Virus record (IMG/VR): IMGVR_UViG_3300009503_000039
Location: 1 to 55,401 of that record
Direction: 5' to 3' (one strand)
DNA: 55,401 nt
Origin: a virus
In this document: positions 16,567 through 28,443 of the stretch, in pieces
How positions within the stretch are numbered: position 1 is the first letter of the stretch
Layout: the number at the start of each line of letters is the position of its first letter
Position numbers and translations under genes: made by a program
The notes under the pieces: generated by a model
What the model was told of the DNA's origin: nothing
Seen by the model: only the letters and a program-made list of their open reading frames with translations
The model's database searches: none

Positions 16567-19026
16567 ATGCGACAAAATTTTGTGAGTAATATTTTAAATC
16601 TTGTTGGTGAAAAATTAGGAGTTATTAAAACTGCAGAGTTAAAGCAAAAACAAGGGATTAAAGAATTAATAGAAGAAGTATTTTTTAAGAAAGCTGATAG
16701 AGATGTACGTTTTGATACAACGGGTCGGGTTGAGGTATGGGTTACAAGTAATGAAATAAAAGAACATAAAGACTATAAGAAGATAGTCGATTCAGATAAA
16801 TCAGATGAAGAAAAAATTAAAGAGCTGAAAGAATTAGCTGTAGATATTGCTTATGATAAAGTACAATCTGTTAGTAAGAATGGAGTTGATATTACTGTTG
16901 AATTAATTGAACAAGATATTAATATTGATAGAATAGATTGGGATAGTTTAGTAAAAAAAGAAGATAAAGAGATGACAGAACAATCTAGTATTAAGTTTTT
17001 GTTTAAAAAGAAAACTAATATAGCTTTGAGTGATTTTTGTAAAAAAGCTGAGTTTGATGTTGATAAATGGAAATCAGAACATCCTGGAATTAATCCAAAT
17101 ATGAATGACGTACTTGGGACAAATTATGAATTTTTAAATAGTGCATTTTTAGAATTACAATTTTTGCCAAAAGGAGTTGCTGTAATAAATGTTGAACCTT
17201 ATGATGAGAATTTTAAAGAGGACTGGTATAGAAAAATAATTAAATTTTTAAAAGATAATGAACAAGTGATATTGTCTAGTCTTCCAGGAGTTGATTATGT
17301 AGAAATTAATGCATTTGGATATACTAAAGTAGGTGAAGTAGACTTTTATTCTAACAATGTTAAAACCGCTGGTTGGGTTCCGGTAAAATCGATTTATCAG
17401 CTTGAATTGGGAGCTCATGTTAAAAAAGATGGTTTAGCTGGATGGGTTGAGGATATACAAGAAGATGGCAAAGTAAGAATTCATTTTGTGGATCCTGAAC
17501 ATGTAGAAATTCTGGATCCTACGACATTATGGGTATTTCAAGGTAAAGTAGCTTTTATTTATACTTGGTGTGGAACATTAGTTAAAAATTTACCGGAAAG
17601 TTTACGTAATAAATTACCTCAATTAAAAGAAACAACTGGGGAAGAAAAATTTGAGGTTGAGCTTCAGAGAGATCGATCTTACAAAATAACTTTAAATGGA
17701 AAAGAATTAGATTTTGTAAAAAAAGAAGATCCGGCCTGGGAGGATTTAAATAATTGGGTATTGATGAAGAATATGAAGATTCGAGATGAAATTTTTTCTG
17801 ATGAATTATGGAGTAAAGTAGCTTACTATATTGATAAAAATTTAATTCACGGAATGCAATCTGTTACAAGAGTATATGAAGGATTTCTTGTACCAGCAGC
17901 TCAATATGTGTTAACAAAAATTATAAATGAAGATAAACCTCAGATATTATGTAATGGTAAATTTGACAAACAAGCTGATTTAGTAGACATTCCAGTTGAT
18001 GTAGATAAAATTTGCCCTGTAGTAAATCATGTTCTGGCGATATATTCTGATAGTATTATAACAGGTAATGAACATTATGGAGATTTTATTGTTAGTTGTT
18101 TTGCTCCTACAAGAAAAGAAGCTTCTACCTGGATATCTAATTTTGAGAGAAGATTAGTTAAAGAAAATCAATATATAGGGAAATCTTTGTATATAGAAAA
18201 TGGGAAAATAAACTTTTGTAATATTCCCAAAGTTATATGGGATGATATTGTATTAGATGATAAAGTAAAGAATGATATAAGAATAAATACAGTATCATTT
18301 TTAAGTGATGAAAGATTAAAGAATACTGGTGTAATGAAAAGAGGATTAATTATTTATGGTCCTCCAGGAACTGGTAAAACTTCAATAATAAAAGCAATAT
18401 TCAATGAGTTAGATGATCGAAATATAAGTAGAATATATGTGACTGCTGAATCTTTTTCAAAAATGTCTGTAAAAAATTTATTTGATTTTATTCCTTATCT
18501 TGGTAAAGTAGTTTTAGCTTTTGAAGATGTAGATATGATCGGTCGTTCTAGAGAAACTCCATTTTCTAATAATTTACTTGGAGATTTGTTGACAAATTTA
18601 GATGGTATGAGAGCTTATGATGAACAAATTGTTGTAATAGCTTCAACGAACAAAATCGAAATGCTAGACAATGCTTTAGCAAATAGACCATGTAGATTTG
18701 ATAGACGTATTGAAATAAAGCTTCCGTCTGAAAAAGACTTAAGAAATCTGTATGAGAAATTTAGTGGAATAAATCTTCCAGAAGAAGTTATAAAAATATC
18801 TGCCGGTTTTACCGGAGCTCATGTTGTAGAAGCAGTAAATACCGCAAAAATACTATCAGCTTATAACAATAAGCCTTTGTATGAATGTATGATAGATGCT
18901 TGCAATATAATACGAAACAATTTCTTTCCTATGCAAACACAAGCCGAAATAAGAAAAGCGGCTTTAGAATCATTGAGAAAAATCGGTCTTAAGATAGAAG
19001 AAGAAGTAGAAAAAGAAATGGAATAA
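16567..19026 (+). CDS. AAA+ ATPase in head gene cluster, part before in-frame TAA
   Basis: An 819-residue protein after a GGAG site. The C-terminal AAA+ module has Walker A GPPGTGKTS near residue 600, Walker B VVLAFEDVDM near 650, sensor-1 IASTN near 692 and an arginine-finger region PCRFDRR near 710, most like the CDC48/FtsH/BCS1 clade. The middle contains an SH3/KOW-like segment (GAHVKKDGLAGWVEDI) and the N-terminus has VIKTAE at residues 19-24. Such ATPases usually remodel or unfold proteins. Its location between portal and protease suggests a role in head assembly or in modifying host targets from the virion. It ends in a Glu/Lys tail at TAA, after which the frame remains open. Confidence 0.85.
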   Translation: MRQNFVSNILNLVGEKLGVIKTAELKQKQGIKELIEEVFFKKADRDVRFDTTGRVEVWVTSNEIKEHKDYKKIVDSDKSDEEKIKELKELAVDIAYDKVQSVSKNGVDITVELIEQDINIDRIDWDSLVKKEDKEMTEQSSIKFLFKKKTNIALSDFCKKAEFDVDKWKSEHPGINPNMNDVLGTNYEFLNSAFLELQFLPKGVAVINVEPYDENFKEDWYRKIIKFLKDNEQVILSSLPGVDYVEINAFGYTKVGEVDFYSNNVKTAGWVPVKSIYQLELGAHVKKDGLAGWVEDIQEDGKVRIHFVDPEHVEILDPTTLWVFQGKVAFIYTWCGTLVKNLPESLRNKLPQLKETTGEEKFEVELQRDRSYKITLNGKELDFVKKEDPAWEDLNNWVLMKNMKIRDEIFSDELWSKVAYYIDKNLIHGMQSVTRVYEGFLVPAAQYVLTKIINEDKPQILCNGKFDKQADLVDIPVDVDKICPVVNHVLAIYSDSIITGNEHYGDFIVSCFAPTRKEASTWISNFERRLVKENQYIGKSLYIENGKINFCNIPKVIWDDIVLDDKVKNDIRINTVSFLSDERLKNTGVMKRGLIIYGPPGTGKTSIIKAIFNELDDRNISRIYVTAESFSKMSVKNLFDFIPYLGKVVLAFEDVDMIGRSRETPFSNNLLGDLLTNLDGMRAYDEQIVVIASTNKIEMLDNALANRPCRFDRRIEIKLPSEKDLRNLYEKFSGINLPEEVIKISAGFTGAHVVEAVNTAKILSAYNNKPLYECMIDACNIIRNNFFPMQTQAEIRKAALESLRKIGLKIEEEVEKEME

Positions 19027-22446: not shown

Positions 22447-25400
22447 ATGTTTATAAAATATGGTACTTTAGAAATTATTGATTCATCTGGGGACTTAGAA
22501 GAGATTGTAGATATAAATGGTATTGGTCATATTGTTGAGGAAAAGAAAGGACCATGGCTTTATTGCCGTGCAAGAGCTTTGACTTGTGATAAGCCAAATG
22601 GAAATAGAGATATATTTCCTAAAGATGAAGTAAAGAAAGCTTATCAATCATTTATAGGTAGAGGTGTTTATCTTAATCACAATAGCGGAAAAGTAGAGAA
22701 TGCGATAGGAAAAATTATAGATGCTTATTTTGTTGATACAGATCCAAATGATGTTCATGTAGAGTGTTTATTTAAGATTAATAAGGAAATGTTTCCTGAT
22801 ATTTGTAAGAGGATTCAGAATGGATTAATGTCAGCGGTAAGCATGGGGTGTATTATTCAAAGGTCGGAGTGTGTTTTACCTACGACTAATGTTTATACAC
22901 TTGATGGATGGAAACAAATAAAAGATATTAGAGTAGGTGAACAAGTATTAACTCATACCGGAAAGTTTAGAAGAGTATTAGCAACTAGTAGGAGGAGTGC
23001 TCCGGAAAAACTAATAAGGATTAGATATAAAATAGCTAATGATGATAAACATATTGGAACGTTAATTTTAACTGATAATCATCCAGTATTAACTGAAAGA
23101 GGATGGATTAAAGCTATTGATTTAGAATCTACAGACAAAATTTCTATAATGGCAAAAAATGGTTATGAATTTAAATTTGTTGATTTAGTTGGTATAGAAG
23201 TATTAGATAATATTCATCCAAATAGAGATAGAGTTAGTGGTGCTTCAGCGTTTACTGTTGTATGTAATTTACAAGTTGAGAAAGATGAATCATATATTGC
23301 TGAGGGAGTTGTAGTTCATAATTGTCAAATCTGCGGAAATATTGCAAGAAATCCTAGTGAATATTGTGAACATCTTGCAAGGTATAGAGGGCAGAAATTC
23401 AATGTTAAAAGGGATGAAAATGGTAAGTATATAGAAGCGGTATTAGATCCAAACGGGCAGGAAGAGGCCAACGAGATCAGCCATGATATTACTTATACTG
23501 AGTTATCGATTGTAGATGCTCCCGCTGATCCTACAGCAGAGATTAAAACGATATGGGCAAGTATAGATGAGAAATTCAGGAAAATGGCAATGTTATTAAC
23601 AGATGAGATCAATAAAAAGATAGATAGTAAGTTTGATGAGTTAGTGAAAACGATGAGTAGTAATAATAGTTTAGATTCTAAGGAGGTTAAAAATATGGTT
23701 GAAGCTAAGAAAAAAGATGAACCAGATATTGGTGTACAAGTAACACCAGAAGCGAAAGAAAAACCAACATTCAAAACAGACGATAAAGATATACCAGCAG
23801 ATATTAGTGTACAGGTAACGCCAGAGGCAAAAGAAAAGCCTAAAGTTGAGAAAACAGATGAGGATGTAATTGGAGTTCAAGAGGAAACGAAAACAGCAGA
23901 AGCGAAAGATGTAGATTTAGATTTAGGTAGAGGAGTAGGTGGTTCCGGAAGAAGAGGTAATCCTAAAACCGATGAAGAAAGAGCAGAAACTCATGGAGTA
24001 TCAGTAGAAGATTTACCTCCAAGAGGAACTGGATTAGGAAAAGGAAAAGGAATTAAAGATGAAGATAAGGAATCTAAAACAGTAGAAGAAAAAGAATCTG
24101 AAACTGAAGTAAATGAAATTTTAAAAGATGTTAGAAAAAAAATAGAGAAAGTATTTGAAGAGGCTTTAAAGAAAACAAAGTCAATGGTGATCTATAAGAT
24201 ATTTAAGAGTGCGGTTCGTTCAAATATTCTTGAACTAAATGAAGAATTAGAAGAAAATGAGGTAGAAGAAATAGTAAATAAAGTAGAAGAAACTGCGGTG
24301 GCAGAAGCTACTGAAGATGCGATGCAAGAATTGAATGTTAAAATTGCCGCTGATGTTGAAGAAGAAAAACCTAAAATAGATGTTCGTTTAGATATTAAAA
24401 GGGATAATTTAGAAGATGAATATATAGTTAGTGAAGATGGTAAAGACGTTATGTCAAGTACTGTAAAAGATGTATTTGGAAAATCAGCTATTCAAAACAT
24501 AGCTTATGCTATAAGTCCAGAATACTTACAGTTATTAAAAACAGCTGCTCAAGAATATGGTAAAGATGCGATTTTAGCAATTTGGGCTGCATCAGAAGAT
24601 AGTGATGCACTGAGCAAAGCAAAAAAATATTTTACTAAGGCATATCCTGACAAAAAATATGTAATTGAATGGATTAAGAAACACAAAGAAAAAGTACAGA
24701 AACCAAGTAATGTGAAGCTTGAGATGACTAAAGTAGCTGATGTTACATCTTCTAATGTAGAAGGACAAACATTACCTTTAGAACAATCTGAAGTTTCTTC
24801 AGAACCAGTAGAAGAATTTACAACACAGCAAATTGAGGAATTTGAAAATGTGACTCATAATTTAATAGAAGGTTTAAGTGATGAGGAATTAGATATAGCT
24901 ACAGATTTTATAGCTGAAGAACTTTCAACAGAAACTAAGCGATATAAACCTGAAGGGCTTGTAAAATTAGCTTCTGTATGTCCTTCTTGTTTTAAAAATA
25001 TGTTAGAAGCCGCTAAAGAGGCAGCTAGAAAAGGTAGAACAATGTCAGAAGCAGCAAAGAAAGGATTATGGAAGAAATTCAAAGGTTCAAAAAAGAAATG
25101 TATAGAATCAATGGAAGGTAAAGTAAGTAATCCAGCAGCATATTGTAGATGGCTGGAAGGTGAAGTAACAGGGGAATATGGTCCTACTCGAACAAAGCCG
25201 GGGAAAAAGAAAGTATGTGAACAAGAAGGAGAAATCAAAGAAGCAGCTTCAAATGAAAAGGGAACATCATATGTAAAAGCAGAACGACCCGGGGAATTCT
25301 TACCAGATGTAGATCTTAGTAAAGAAACTAAACGAGTTCTTTCTGGTGATAAAGGAGAATTAAAAGGAAATAAGTTTGTAGAACCAGAGGGTGGTTCAAA

Positions 25401-25941
25401 ACCTGAGCCTCAATCTATGGAAAAAGCAAAAGGCTCAGATTTACAGGGTGTTGATTATATAGAACCAGAGGGTGGAACAAAAATACAAAGTTCTATTGAA
25501 TCAGACGAATCAAAGAGATTAAAAGAAGAAAATGAGATGTTAAAAAATCAATTAGCTGCGGAACAGGCTAAAAGAGTTTTAGAAAATAAAGTTGCTCGTT
25601 GTAAAGACATTGCTACAAAGATGGCATATAAAGGATTGATAGTTCCTGATGATGCTGAAGTAAAAGATATCCTATTAAAAAGAGCAACGGAAAAAATCAG
25701 TGTTATTGATGCAAATAAAGAATCTTTCAAAAACCAGATTGAGAGACAAATATCAGATTTGATGGCTATGGACGATCATACTTTAGATGCATTTGAAAAA
25801 ACAATCGATAGAATACCTGATAAAAAGACACAAAAGATAGCTATTCTTCAAGATGGAGCAAAACAGCGGCCAGAAGATAATGAATTTTATATTCCGTTTA
25901 CAGTGAATAAGGAAGCATTGAAAAGGTTTGGAGGTAAATAA
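22447..25941 (+). CDS. prohead protease fused to scaffold, with mini-intein
   Basis: An 1,164-codon precursor, 1,013 residues after protein splicing. The protease domain shows a catalytic-type His in VYLNHNSGK (H78), Ser in SAVSMGC (S132) and the ELSIVDAPADP segment of HK97/S78-like prohead proteases. It also has a Cys cluster CQICGN...YCEH. An intein occupies codons 142-292. The long C-terminal part is acidic, has the tandem string VQVTPEAKEKP twice and a Cys-containing module (VCPSCFKNML). It ends in a coiled coil (LKEENEMLKNQLAAEQAKRV), as expected for a scaffold. Such fused proteins build the prohead and then digest the scaffold. It sits directly upstream of the capsid genes. Confidence 0.85.
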   Translation: MFIKYGTLEIIDSSGDLEEIVDINGIGHIVEEKKGPWLYCRARALTCDKPNGNRDIFPKDEVKKAYQSFIGRGVYLNHNSGKVENAIGKIIDAYFVDTDPNDVHVECLFKINKEMFPDICKRIQNGLMSAVSMGCIIQRSECVLPTTNVYTLDGWKQIKDIRVGEQVLTHTGKFRRVLATSRRSAPEKLIRIRYKIANDDKHIGTLILTDNHPVLTERGWIKAIDLESTDKISIMAKNGYEFKFVDLVGIEVLDNIHPNRDRVSGASAFTVVCNLQVEKDESYIAEGVVVHNCQICGNIARNPSEYCEHLARYRGQKFNVKRDENGKYIEAVLDPNGQEEANEISHDITYTELSIVDAPADPTAEIKTIWASIDEKFRKMAMLLTDEINKKIDSKFDELVKTMSSNNSLDSKEVKNMVEAKKKDEPDIGVQVTPEAKEKPTFKTDDKDIPADISVQVTPEAKEKPKVEKTDEDVIGVQEETKTAEAKDVDLDLGRGVGGSGRRGNPKTDEERAETHGVSVEDLPPRGTGLGKGKGIKDEDKESKTVEEKESETEVNEILKDVRKKIEKVFEEALKKTKSMVIYKIFKSAVRSNILELNEELEENEVEEIVNKVEETAVAEATEDAMQELNVKIAADVEEEKPKIDVRLDIKRDNLEDEYIVSEDGKDVMSSTVKDVFGKSAIQNIAYAISPEYLQLLKTAAQEYGKDAILAIWAASEDSDALSKAKKYFTKAYPDKKYVIEWIKKHKEKVQKPSNVKLEMTKVADVTSSNVEGQTLPLEQSEVSSEPVEEFTTQQIEEFENVTHNLIEGLSDEELDIATDFIAEELSTETKRYKPEGLVKLASVCPSCFKNMLEAAKEAARKGRTMSEAAKKGLWKKFKGSKKKCIESMEGKVSNPAAYCRWLEGEVTGEYGPTRTKPGKKKVCEQEGEIKEAASNEKGTSYVKAERPGEFLPDVDLSKETKRVLSGDKGELKGNKFVEPEGGSKPEPQSMEKAKGSDLQGVDYIEPEGGTKIQSSIESDESKRLKEENEMLKNQLAAEQAKRVLENKVARCKDIATKMAYKGLIVPDDAEVKDILLKRATEKISVIDANKESFKNQIERQISDLMAMDDHTLDAFEKTIDRIPDKKTQKIAILQDGAKQRPEDNEFYIPFTVNKEALKRFGGK
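22870..23322 (+). other. mini-intein inside the prohead protease
   Basis: A 151-residue Hint domain. It starts with Cys (CVLPTTNVYTLDGWKQI, block A), has the TDNH of block B, and ends with block F/G text YIAEGVVVHN before a Cys +1 residue. No homing-endonuclease domain is present. The insertion point is immediately before the first Cys of the CQICGN zinc-type motif, a conserved site where an insertion would block function until spliced. Confidence 0.93.
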
Positions 25942-26122: not shown

Positions 26123-26566
26123 ATGGCTCTCAAAGTTGTTAAGGAAGTTAATAGGTTACAAGGCTTGAAAGTTGCTCCTGGATTGACAATTTGTGCAGGT
26201 CAAGTTGCTAAACTGTTATCTACCGATACTGCTGGGGAAACCGCAACAGTAGGTAACACAGGTCCATATATAGGGCTATTTATGGACACTAATATCTCAA
26301 CAGGACTTGGACTGAATCAGCGTGATGAAACATCAGGTTCTGGTCTGGTTTCTGTTATGACAAATGGTGGTTATGTTTTAGTCTGGAATGATGGACGCGG
26401 TTCTCCTTATGTTACTACAGATACGTATACAATCGGCGCTGCATTGTATAGTGACGAAAACGGTAGAATAACTACATCAGGTTCAGGTACTACCAACTTG
26501 GTTGGATATTGCACAAAAGTCCCAGCAAGTGCAACAGATAGTCTTGGAATTAAACTCGTAGTTTAG
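26123..26566 (+). CDS. capsid decoration/stabilising-type protein
   Basis: A 147-residue protein rich in Gly, Thr, Ser and Val with a beta-sandwich-like pattern and few charges, directly upstream of the major capsid gene. Position, size and composition fit a head decoration protein of the type that binds capsomers. Codon use is less AT-biased than in neighbours, as in the capsid gene, consistent with high expression. The start ATG follows GGGAG. Confidence 0.65.
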   Translation: MALKVVKEVNRLQGLKVAPGLTICAGQVAKLLSTDTAGETATVGNTGPYIGLFMDTNISTGLGLNQRDETSGSGLVSVMTNGGYVLVWNDGRGSPYVTTDTYTIGAALYSDENGRITTSGSGTTNLVGYCTKVPASATDSLGIKLVV

Positions 26567-26638: not shown

Positions 26639-28443
26639 ATGGAGACTCAAATTGATCCTAGAGTACTAGATCAAAAGCTCGAAGCTTTAATGAGTACTCC
26701 AGGTGGATGGAACAAGATCGCTCAGCAGATAAATTGAAAAATTGTGTCTGAGATTATGGTGACATAATCATGGAATGTGACTATATCAGTCAAAGTCCTA
26801 CGAGATAGCATCAAGAGGATCAGACTGAGGAAAGATTAGAAACTAATTATAGTTTCAGTATCCCCAGAGACTATACGTCACACATCTCGGTAATGAGATG
26901 AAGATATAGTCCGGTCTGCATAGTAATATGCAGAGTTAAGCAGAAATGACTTAACTTCTAGAAATTTTTAAAAATTTCTAGAATAACAAAAACGGCAATC
27001 TCCCATCAAATATGACTTGCTTTATGAAGGGAGAGCTCGTCAGATTTTCAGAGTTCACACCCTTGCACAGGGAGAACCTGCAATCTTTGATCGAGATATT
27101 CGTGTTCCATCATATAAGCTTTCCAAAAGAGGTCTGCCTCCAGAACTTTATATCGAATCTGACAGGATAGAGGTAAATACATTCGAAATTGCAACTGTTC
27201 CTAAGATTCGTTATGAGGAACTGGTTTACAGGCGATTTGACGTATTGAACAGGGCTTTAGCATAGCTTGGGCCCTCTCGTCAGCAATGACGATGTACAAA
27301 ACTTTACTATATGCAAAGACGTCCTTATTTTAATAAGGATAATTTGCAGGAAAGATTATTTTATGAAGATACAATGTAAAGAAGAAGAAAATTGGTTAAT
27401 ATCAGAATATAAGAAAGTCGGTTATGATTACTTAATTATTTAGGTAAGAGGTATAAAGCATAGTAAAAGATAAGATTTTAAACTTCATAAAATAAAATCC
27501 TCAGAGACTATACGTAAAGCTCCTATATTGTTATATAGGATGAAGACATAGTCCGAACTATAGGTATATATAAAGCTATAGAGTTAAGCAGAAATGACTT
27601 AACTATTTATAATATAACTTATTATAAATATAACACTATCGCAAGAACGTGCTAAATCTCAGATAATGGAGATTGAAGATACTGAGATGCTTAGGATTCT
27701 TGATGTCGCTTCAACTGCGGTAAATAGTGCAGTTGTAGAATCAAGTTCTGATGGAAAGCTTACACTTGACTCATTAGGTCTAGCTTTTGCAGCAATTGAA
27801 TCTAGACGTTTGGTTCCAGTTACAATACTTATGCATCCTTTTCATTTGAGAGATCTTAGAACATTTAACATTCAGTCAACTGGGTCTAAAGTGTTCGATG
27901 AGATCACTCTCTATGAAGTATTGAAAACTGGAAAAGTAGGAACAATTTGGAATGCTCAGGTTTTGACCAGTCCACTAGTTAATCCTGCAAAGATATATGT
28001 CTTAAATTAAAACGCTAGGACATGTAAAATCTGACTATATCGGTGGAACTCCTACGAGATAACATCAAGAGGACAATACCGAGGAAAGATTAGAAACTAA
28101 TTATAGTTTCAATATCCGTAGAGACTATACGTCAGACATCTCAGTAATGAGATGAAGATATAGTCCGATCTGCATAGTAATATGCAGAGTTAGACAGAAA
28201 TGGTCTAACACGTCTTTAAAATAGACGATTAACAAAAATGGTGCTGCTCCTGAATTTGTGGGAGTTATGCCTATAAGGATAGACGTAACAGTGAAACCAT
28301 TCGACAATGTCGAGAAACTTTATGTTACTTTCAGCTGCTTTGAGAATGTTGGATTTTGCGTAGTTTTTTCTCATGGCATTGTTCAGATTGCTTTCACAGG
28401 TACTCCTTCTGGTGGATGGCCTAGCTACGGTCCAACTGGTTAA
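26639..28443 (+). CDS. major capsid protein, split by three group I introns
   Basis: No single frame encodes the protein. Four exons, 26639-26730, 26995-27256, 27642-28002 and 28241-28443, total 918 bases and give a continuous 305-residue protein. Exon 2 contains SPIKYDLLYEGRARQIFRVH and exon 4 APEFVGVMPIRIDV, text typical of myovirus/HK97-fold capsid proteins. The gene lies after the protease/scaffold and a decoration protein, exactly where the capsid gene belongs. Each 5' splice site ends in T paired with G of an internal guide, and each junction restores frame. The third junction may be off by one base (Cys or Phe at the joint). The ATG follows a weak site (GAAAGAAAAAC). Confidence 0.9.
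26731..26994 (+). ncRNA. group I intron 1 in capsid gene
   Basis: 264 bases with no open frame. P1: exon CAGAT pairs with guide GTCTG, with the conserved U-G at the splice site. P10: exon GCAAT pairs with ATTGT just before the guide. P2 is GATTATG-GTGA-CATAATC. P7 is GACTATA/TATAGTC with P8 CATCTC/GAGATG between. A P9 hairpin (TCTGCATA/TATGCAGA) and GTTAAG/CTTAAC follow, and the last base is G. The layout is that of class IA introns. Nearly identical to intron 3. Confidence 0.93.
27257..27641 (+). ncRNA. group I intron 2 in capsid gene
   Basis: 385 bases. P1: exon AGGGCT pairs with guide GGCCCT, with U-G at the splice site. P10: exon CAAG pairs with CTTG. P7 is GACTAT/ATAGTC with P8 TCCTATAT/ATATAGGA. 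It shares the GTTAAG/CTTAAC hairpin with intron 1 but is otherwise diverged and about 120 bases longer. The extra part contains a 26-codon frame (27363-27443) that may be the remains of a homing-endonuclease gene. Confidence 0.92.
28003..28240 (+). ncRNA. group I intron 3 in capsid gene
   Basis: 238 bases. P1: exon ATGTCT pairs with guide GGACAT, with U-G at the splice site. P7, P8 and P9 are the same as in intron 1. The distal hairpin is GTTAGAC/GTCTAAC, a compensated change relative to introns 1 and 2 that supports the fold. P10 is short, so the 3' boundary could be one base off. Confidence 0.9.

What the first reader, a model, noticed from the sequence alone, without database searches (positions are those of the whole stretch)
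26639..28443. Major capsid gene interrupted by three group I introns
Four exons splice to exactly 918 bases encoding a 305-residue capsid protein. Seen directly: each 5' exon ends in T that pairs with G of an internal guide (CAGAT/GTCTG, AGGGCT/GGCCCT, ATGTCT/GGACAT), all three have a P7 GACTAT(A)/(T)ATAGTC with a P8 stem between, and all junctions restore frame. Known: self-splicing introns in phages often sit in conserved genes. Three in one capsid gene of only 0.9 kb coding length, all lacking intact endonucleases, is unusual. Half of the gene is ribozyme.
Basis: partly seen in the sequence, partly recalled or inferred. Interest (0 to 1): 0.85.

Follow-up and report, generated by a model that had tools for sequence, protein, structure and literature searches.

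The report
Capsid gene split by three introns
The gene for the main shell protein of an uncultured phage distantly related to giant Bacillus phage G is cut into four pieces by three compact group I introns (RNA elements predicted to splice themselves out) without endonucleases, and similar introns sit at other positions in about a fifth of the related shell genes examined.

Summary
Four exons (26639-26730, 26995-27256, 27642-28002, 28241-28443) join to 918 nt / 305 aa. A spliced-alignment search with a capsid profile built without the window recovers the same three introns to the base. The spliced protein is an HK97-fold major capsid protein, about 40% identical to phage G gp27, with no gap at any joint. 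Rfam finds group I introns 1 and 3 above threshold and intron 2 below it (34.2 of 50 bits, E=1.7e-6). P1, P3, P7, P8, P9 and P9.2 form in all three. None holds an endonuclease gene.

It is not isolated. Recruiting relatives by the last exon only, 17 of 76 complete capsid genes are split, at about 11 positions; six carry three introns, one with a 13-nt exon. Most relatives' introns carry LAGLIDADG endonucleases; the window's do not. Intron 1 lies at a base also used in three other phages, yet in the core tree the window's three introns group together, suggesting spread or core conversion within the gene. Multi-intron phage capsid genes were reported in crAss-like phages (Yutin 2021), so this is a new member of a known kind. 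The hotspot in phage-G-like phages was not found described. Splicing itself is untested.

The parts
26639..26730 (+). exon 1 of the major capsid gene (residues 1-30 and the first two bases of codon 31)
   Evidence: ends CAGAT, P1 with GTCTG
26731..26994 (+). group I intron 1, 264 nt, no endonuclease; in-frame stop ends at intron nt 7
   Evidence: RF00028 73.9 bits; P1, P3, P7, P8, P9, P9.2, P10; stop
26995..27256 (+). exon 2 of the major capsid gene
   Evidence: gap-free joints with phage G gp27
27257..27641 (+). group I intron 2, 385 nt; in-frame stop ends at intron nt 9
   Evidence: RF00028 34.2 bits, E=1.7e-6 in the focused search, below the gathering score; P1, P3, P7, P8, P9, P9.2, P10 form
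27366..27443 (+). 26-codon ORF in the place where relatives carry a LAGLIDADG gene; possible relic, not statistically supported
27642..28002 (+). exon 3 of the major capsid gene
28003..28240 (+). group I intron 3, 238 nt, no endonuclease; 90% identical to intron 1 over 175 nt of core; in-frame stop ends at intron nt 8
   Evidence: RF00028 85.3 bits
28241..28443 (+). exon 4 of the major capsid gene, with stop codon
   Evidence: PEFVGVMPIR motif
26123..26566 (+). likely capsid cement/decoration protein directly upstream (phage G has its decoration gene gp26 in the same place)
   Evidence: Pfam Phage_cement_2; phage G gene order

Best explanation
This is a working HK97-fold major capsid gene of an uncultured phage distantly related to phage G, interrupted by three group I ribozymes. 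After transcription each intron pairs the end of its 5' exon with its internal guide (P1), uses guanosine to cut after the terminal U, pairs the 3' exon (P10, clear for introns 1 and 2) and joins the exons, so that only the fully spliced mRNA gives the 305-aa capsid protein. An in-frame stop at intron nt 7-9 would stop ribosomes before they enter the ribozyme. The introns lack the LAGLIDADG gene that most relatives carry in the same part of the ribozyme, so they are probably no longer mobile by homing. Their cores are closer to each other than to introns at the same position in other phages, so they probably multiplied, or exchanged cores, inside this gene. Shown here: anatomy, exact joints, capsid identity, recurrence in relatives. 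Inferred: catalytic activity, stop-codon role, history.
For: Blind profile splicing gives exactly these boundaries. Spliced protein: NCBIfam NF042927 156 bits against a cut-off of 80, PHROG 2522 major head protein E=8e-50, phage G gp27 39.6% over 95% in one piece, gap-free at the joints. Rfam hits. Three different but complementary P3 helices: TGTGAC/GTCACA, CTTTAC/GTAAAG, TCTGAC/GTCAGA. At the shared position 31, exon and guide change together (CAGAT/GTCTG in the window, GCCAT/GTGGC in L253, L259, L262), and P10 likewise for L253 and the window. Over 34 capsid introns, P1 and P10 exceed shifted controls (Fisher p about 1e-32 and 1e-30, rows not independent). Every way of skipping an exon breaks the frame. 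Early in-frame stops in 25 of 34 introns, 37% expected. Core tree: introns 1 and 3 sisters (100/99), all three window introns plus L239's position-123 intron (97/82).
Against: No RNA evidence. Intron 2 is below Rfam's gathering score. P10 of intron 3 is weak (3 bp, offset 2, p=0.07). The core tree rests on about 270 columns and 28 rows. The window's capsid protein sits on a long branch with no close relative, so its precise kin are unknown.
Confidence: 0.92

Rival explanations
1. Decayed gene: the introns no longer splice and the phage uses another capsid gene outside this 55-kb fragment.
For: The record is a fragment with linear ends; intron 2 scores low with Rfam; no endonuclease is left.
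Against: All four exons are open and in frame with conserved capsid motifs, including residues next to each joint; all core helices are intact in all three introns; the gene sits next to protease and cement genes, as in phage G.
Confidence: 0.04
2. The pieces are read as one protein without RNA splicing, by ribosome bypassing, or are made as separate polypeptides that assemble.
For: Bypassing of non-coding stretches is known in phage T4 gene 60 (own knowledge).
Against: The inserts are complete group I ribozymes by Rfam and by helices; boundaries obey the U and G rules of group I introns with matching guides; exons 1 and 4 are too small to stand alone.
Confidence: 0.02
3. Origin: the three introns were gained one by one from outside by homing at each position, not multiplied within the gene.
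For: Position 31 is occupied in three other phages, two of them with LAGLIDADG-bearing introns; endonucleases at one position are usually more alike; intron-bearing capsids are scattered on the protein tree (15 changes, 16.8 by shuffling).
Against: In the core tree the window's introns are closer to each other than to introns at the same position (97/82); introns 1 and 3 share 90% identity over 175 nt while their guides and 3' ends differ.
Confidence: 0.3
4. Assembly artefact: the near-identical cores of introns 1 and 3 misled the assembler.
For: 175 nt at 90% identity lie 1.25 kb apart.
Against: The exons on both sides continue one protein exactly, guides match their own exons, and 17 other contigs show the same kind of structure.
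Confidence: 0.01

Closest known systems
crAss-like (zeta group) phage major capsid gene of cMAG OLRF01000054 (Yutin et al. 2021, PMC7886860)
   Same: Major capsid gene in several pieces (five), with group I intron domains in three of the four spacers
   Different: Different phage group; recognised there through intron-encoded endonuclease domains, whereas the window's introns have none and were located to the base here
Staphylococcus phage Twort orf142 (Landthaler and Shub 1999, as cited in PMC11878797)
   Same: Three group I introns in one short phage structural gene (tail tube)
   Different: Tail tube, not capsid; exon skipping was seen there, while here every skip breaks the frame
Mycobacteriophage LittleE major capsid intron (PMC3706429)
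   Same: Intron in a major capsid gene, exon ends in U and intron in G, spliced in infected cells
   Different: One intron only, with a LAGLIDADG-like ORF; another phage family
Bacillus phage G gp27, major capsid (JN638751.1)
   Same: Closest characterised capsid protein, 39.6% identity; decoration gene directly upstream
   Different: Uninterrupted gene; no group I intron found in the phage G genome
Capsid introns of phage-G-like IMG/VR contigs (L228, L244, L253, L255, L259, L262, L271, L239 and others)
   Same: Same gene, homologous ribozymes, up to three per gene, one shared position (31, phase 2)
   Different: Mostly 1.0-1.4 kb with LAGLIDADG_2 endonucleases; positions 119 and 239 were seen only in the window

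Membership tests
Group I intron | P1 with a terminal U.G wobble at the 5' splice site | tested here: met
   CAGAT/GTCTG, AGGGCT/GGCCCT, ATGTCT/GGACAT; p = 0.016, <0.01, <0.01 against shifted donors
Group I intron | Last intron base is G (omega-G) | tested here: met
   26994, 27641 and 28240 are G, and this gives the only gap-free joints; note that G was imposed in the search
Group I intron | Catalytic core P3-P8, match to Rfam RF00028 | tested here: met
   Introns 1 and 3 above the gathering score; intron 2 34.2 bits, below it, E=1.7e-6, core helices present in all three
Group I intron | P10 pairing of the guide region with the 3' exon | tested here: inconclusive
   Intron 1 5 bp p=0.014, intron 2 4 bp p=0.013, intron 3 3 bp p=0.072
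Group I intron | Self-splicing with guanosine | not testable with these tools
   Needs RNA
Mobile (homing) group I intron | Intact homing endonuclease gene in the intron | tested here: not met
   No open stretch above 60 codons, no homologue of relatives' endonucleases elsewhere in the window
Intein (rival filing) | Insert continuously open in frame with both exons | tested here: not met
   In-frame stop at nt 7-9 of each intron
HK97-fold major capsid protein | Match of the spliced protein to curated capsid models | tested here: met
   NF042927 156 bits against cut-off 80, Pfam PF05065 29.2 against 24.2, PHROG 2522
HK97-fold major capsid protein | HK97 fold in a model or structure of the spliced protein | not tested

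The most novel reading that the evidence does not exclude
In phage-G-like phages the major capsid gene is a recurrent landing place for a family of LAGLIDADG-bearing group I introns, at about 11 positions including exons as short as 13 nt; in the window's lineage the introns lost their endonucleases and spread from position to position inside the same gene by a route other than endonuclease homing (reverse splicing or core conversion).
Probability: 0.4. Interest if true: 0.65.

Novelty: new member of a known kind. Interest (0 to 1): 0.5.

Why it matters
A 2025 survey of Bastillevirinae asked why phage introns colonise only genes of nucleotide and DNA metabolism (PMC11878797). Here a gene expected to be among the most highly expressed late genes is repeatedly split, which sets a lower limit on how efficient splicing must be. 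It also shows a search bias: ranking relatives by whole-protein score found 1 split gene in 80, recruiting by one exon found 17 in 76 complete genes, so such capsid genes are easily missed or annotated as fragments. The window's three endonuclease-free introns, two nearly identical in core yet with different guides, are a good test case for how introns move within a gene.

Tried and rejected
Whole-protein scan of viral contigs with the window capsid alone found nothing; an alignment of eight distant capsids had no usable motif. A strict P7-P8 DNA pattern found only L011, with LAGLIDADG ORFs and no Rfam intron match, read as fungal mitochondrial DNA by inspection. The genome-contig scan gave two distant capsids whose 'introns' were at the minimum length allowed and are not believed. 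Rejected: intein (in-frame stops), exon skipping giving alternative proteins (all skips break frame). The idea that intron 2's small ORF is an endonuclease relic got no significant match. Structure prediction was not tried: the spliced protein is not a contiguous translation. DP boundaries of some relatives (L228 position 35, L253 position 48, L255 position 35) have poor P1 or P10 and may be a few bases off.

Full report
What was checked. The window is a 55,401-bp IMG/VR virus record with linear ends. The claimed exons exist: 92 + 262 + 361 + 203 = 918 nt, 305 codons and a stop. To test the joints without using the claim, I wrote a spliced-alignment programme (profile of 20 uninterrupted capsid proteins, window excluded; exon must end in T, intron in G, minimum 150 nt). 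It returned 26730|26995, 27256|27642 and 28002|28241 exactly at two of four intron penalties; at the highest the short first exon was left off, at the lowest two spurious introns were added at the ends. The reversed sequence scores 28 against 354.

The protein. The spliced product is a major capsid protein by NCBIfam NF042927 (HK97-fold, 156 bits, cut-off 80), Pfam and PHROG 2522. Its best isolate match is gp27 of Bacillus phage G, 39.6% over 95% in one tblastn piece. Alignments have no gap at any joint, and M31, A118, Q119, A240, P242 and E243 beside the joints are invariant in the phage G group. The gene upstream is a likely cement protein and the one before that a head maturation protease, resembling the phage G order.

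The introns. Rfam RF00028 reports intron 3 (85.3 bits) and intron 1 (73.9) above the gathering score of 50; intron 2 has 34.2 bits, E=1.7e-6 in the focused search. P1, P3, P7, P8, P9 and P9.2 form in all three, with three different complementary P3 sequences. P10 is clear for introns 1 and 2, weak for intron 3. No intron holds an open stretch above 60 codons. Each has an in-frame stop ending at nt 7-9. Only the fully spliced combination keeps the frame.

Relatives. A scan ranked by whole-protein similarity gave 80 loci with one split capsid gene, L018. Since such ranking disfavours split genes, I recruited 80 IMG/VR loci by exon 4 alone. Of 76 complete capsid genes 17 are split, 8 with two or more introns and 5 with three; a lower intron penalty adds a third intron in L239, with a 13-nt exon ATTAGGATGGCGT between two introns that restores NPIRMALDYQ. 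With L152, found by an intron pattern, and the window, 34 introns were collected. Positions in window numbering: 31.2, 35.2, 37-38, 48-49, 54, 59, 119, 123, 126, 206 and 239. Some boundaries may be a few bases off. Rfam independently confirms group I introns in many of these; several contigs, such as L227, L255, L259, L264, L267 and L281, gave no Rfam hit at E 0.01 and rest on spliced alignment, P1/P10 and the endonuclease. P1 and P10 exceed shifted controls over the set (Fisher p about 1e-32 and 1e-30), but rows share ancestry, so these are not true probabilities. Nine long intron ORFs tested are all LAGLIDADG_2 endonucleases. None of 22 isolate records with this capsid family has a split gene.

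History. On the capsid tree the intron-bearing genes are scattered (15 changes, 16.8 in shuffles, at least 8 forced by supported branches). Window intron 1 lies at the same base as introns in L253, L259 and L262, with guide and exon changed together. Yet in the core tree introns 1 and 3 are sisters (100/99) and all three window introns plus L239's position-123 intron form a group (97/82). Introns 1 and 3 share 90% over 175 nt, while 5' ends with guides and 3' ends differ. Spread inside the gene, or conversion of the core between introns, fits best; separate gain is not excluded.

Known or new. Single introns in phage capsid genes are known (LittleE, Tuc2009; PMC3706429), three introns in one structural gene in Twort (cited in PMC11878797), and a crAss-like capsid gene in five pieces with group I intron domains (PMC7886860). 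Huge gut Jug phages average 18.5 group I introns per genome, with metatranscriptome support for 37 of 76 (PMC12363816). I found no description of the phage-G-like capsid hotspot or of the very short exons, within open-access papers only. The window is therefore a new member of a known kind.

Noticed in passing
22870-23322 (+), inside ORF 22447-25941: A 151-aa mini-intein without endonuclease interrupts the head maturation protease (C142 to N292, followed by C); TIGR01443 intein C-terminal over cut-off, Hint/intein domains by Pfam. So all four splicing elements in the two neighbouring head genes lack endonucleases.
   Followed up: partly
L239:2150-2162: 13-nt exon between two group I introns of a capsid gene; short exons of about 13-18 nt also in L253, L255, L259 and L271.
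   Followed up: partly
L018:1962-3007: Phage-G-like capsid gene with one group I intron and an intact LAGLIDADG endonuclease.
   Followed up: yes
   Followed up: no
L011: An IMG/VR record that looks like fungal mitochondrial DNA (several LAGLIDADG ORFs), probably not viral.
   Followed up: no
L116, L207, L111: Contigs with two or more copies of the intron 3' core close together, perhaps other multi-intron genes.
   Followed up: no
L004:589-2258 (phage G gp22/gp23): Phage G gp23, upstream of the capsid gene, is annotated as joined from two pieces, overlapping gp22; reason not examined.
   Followed up: no
16567-19026 (+): Large protein with an AAA ATPase domain between portal and protease genes in the head module; role unknown.
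   Followed up: no
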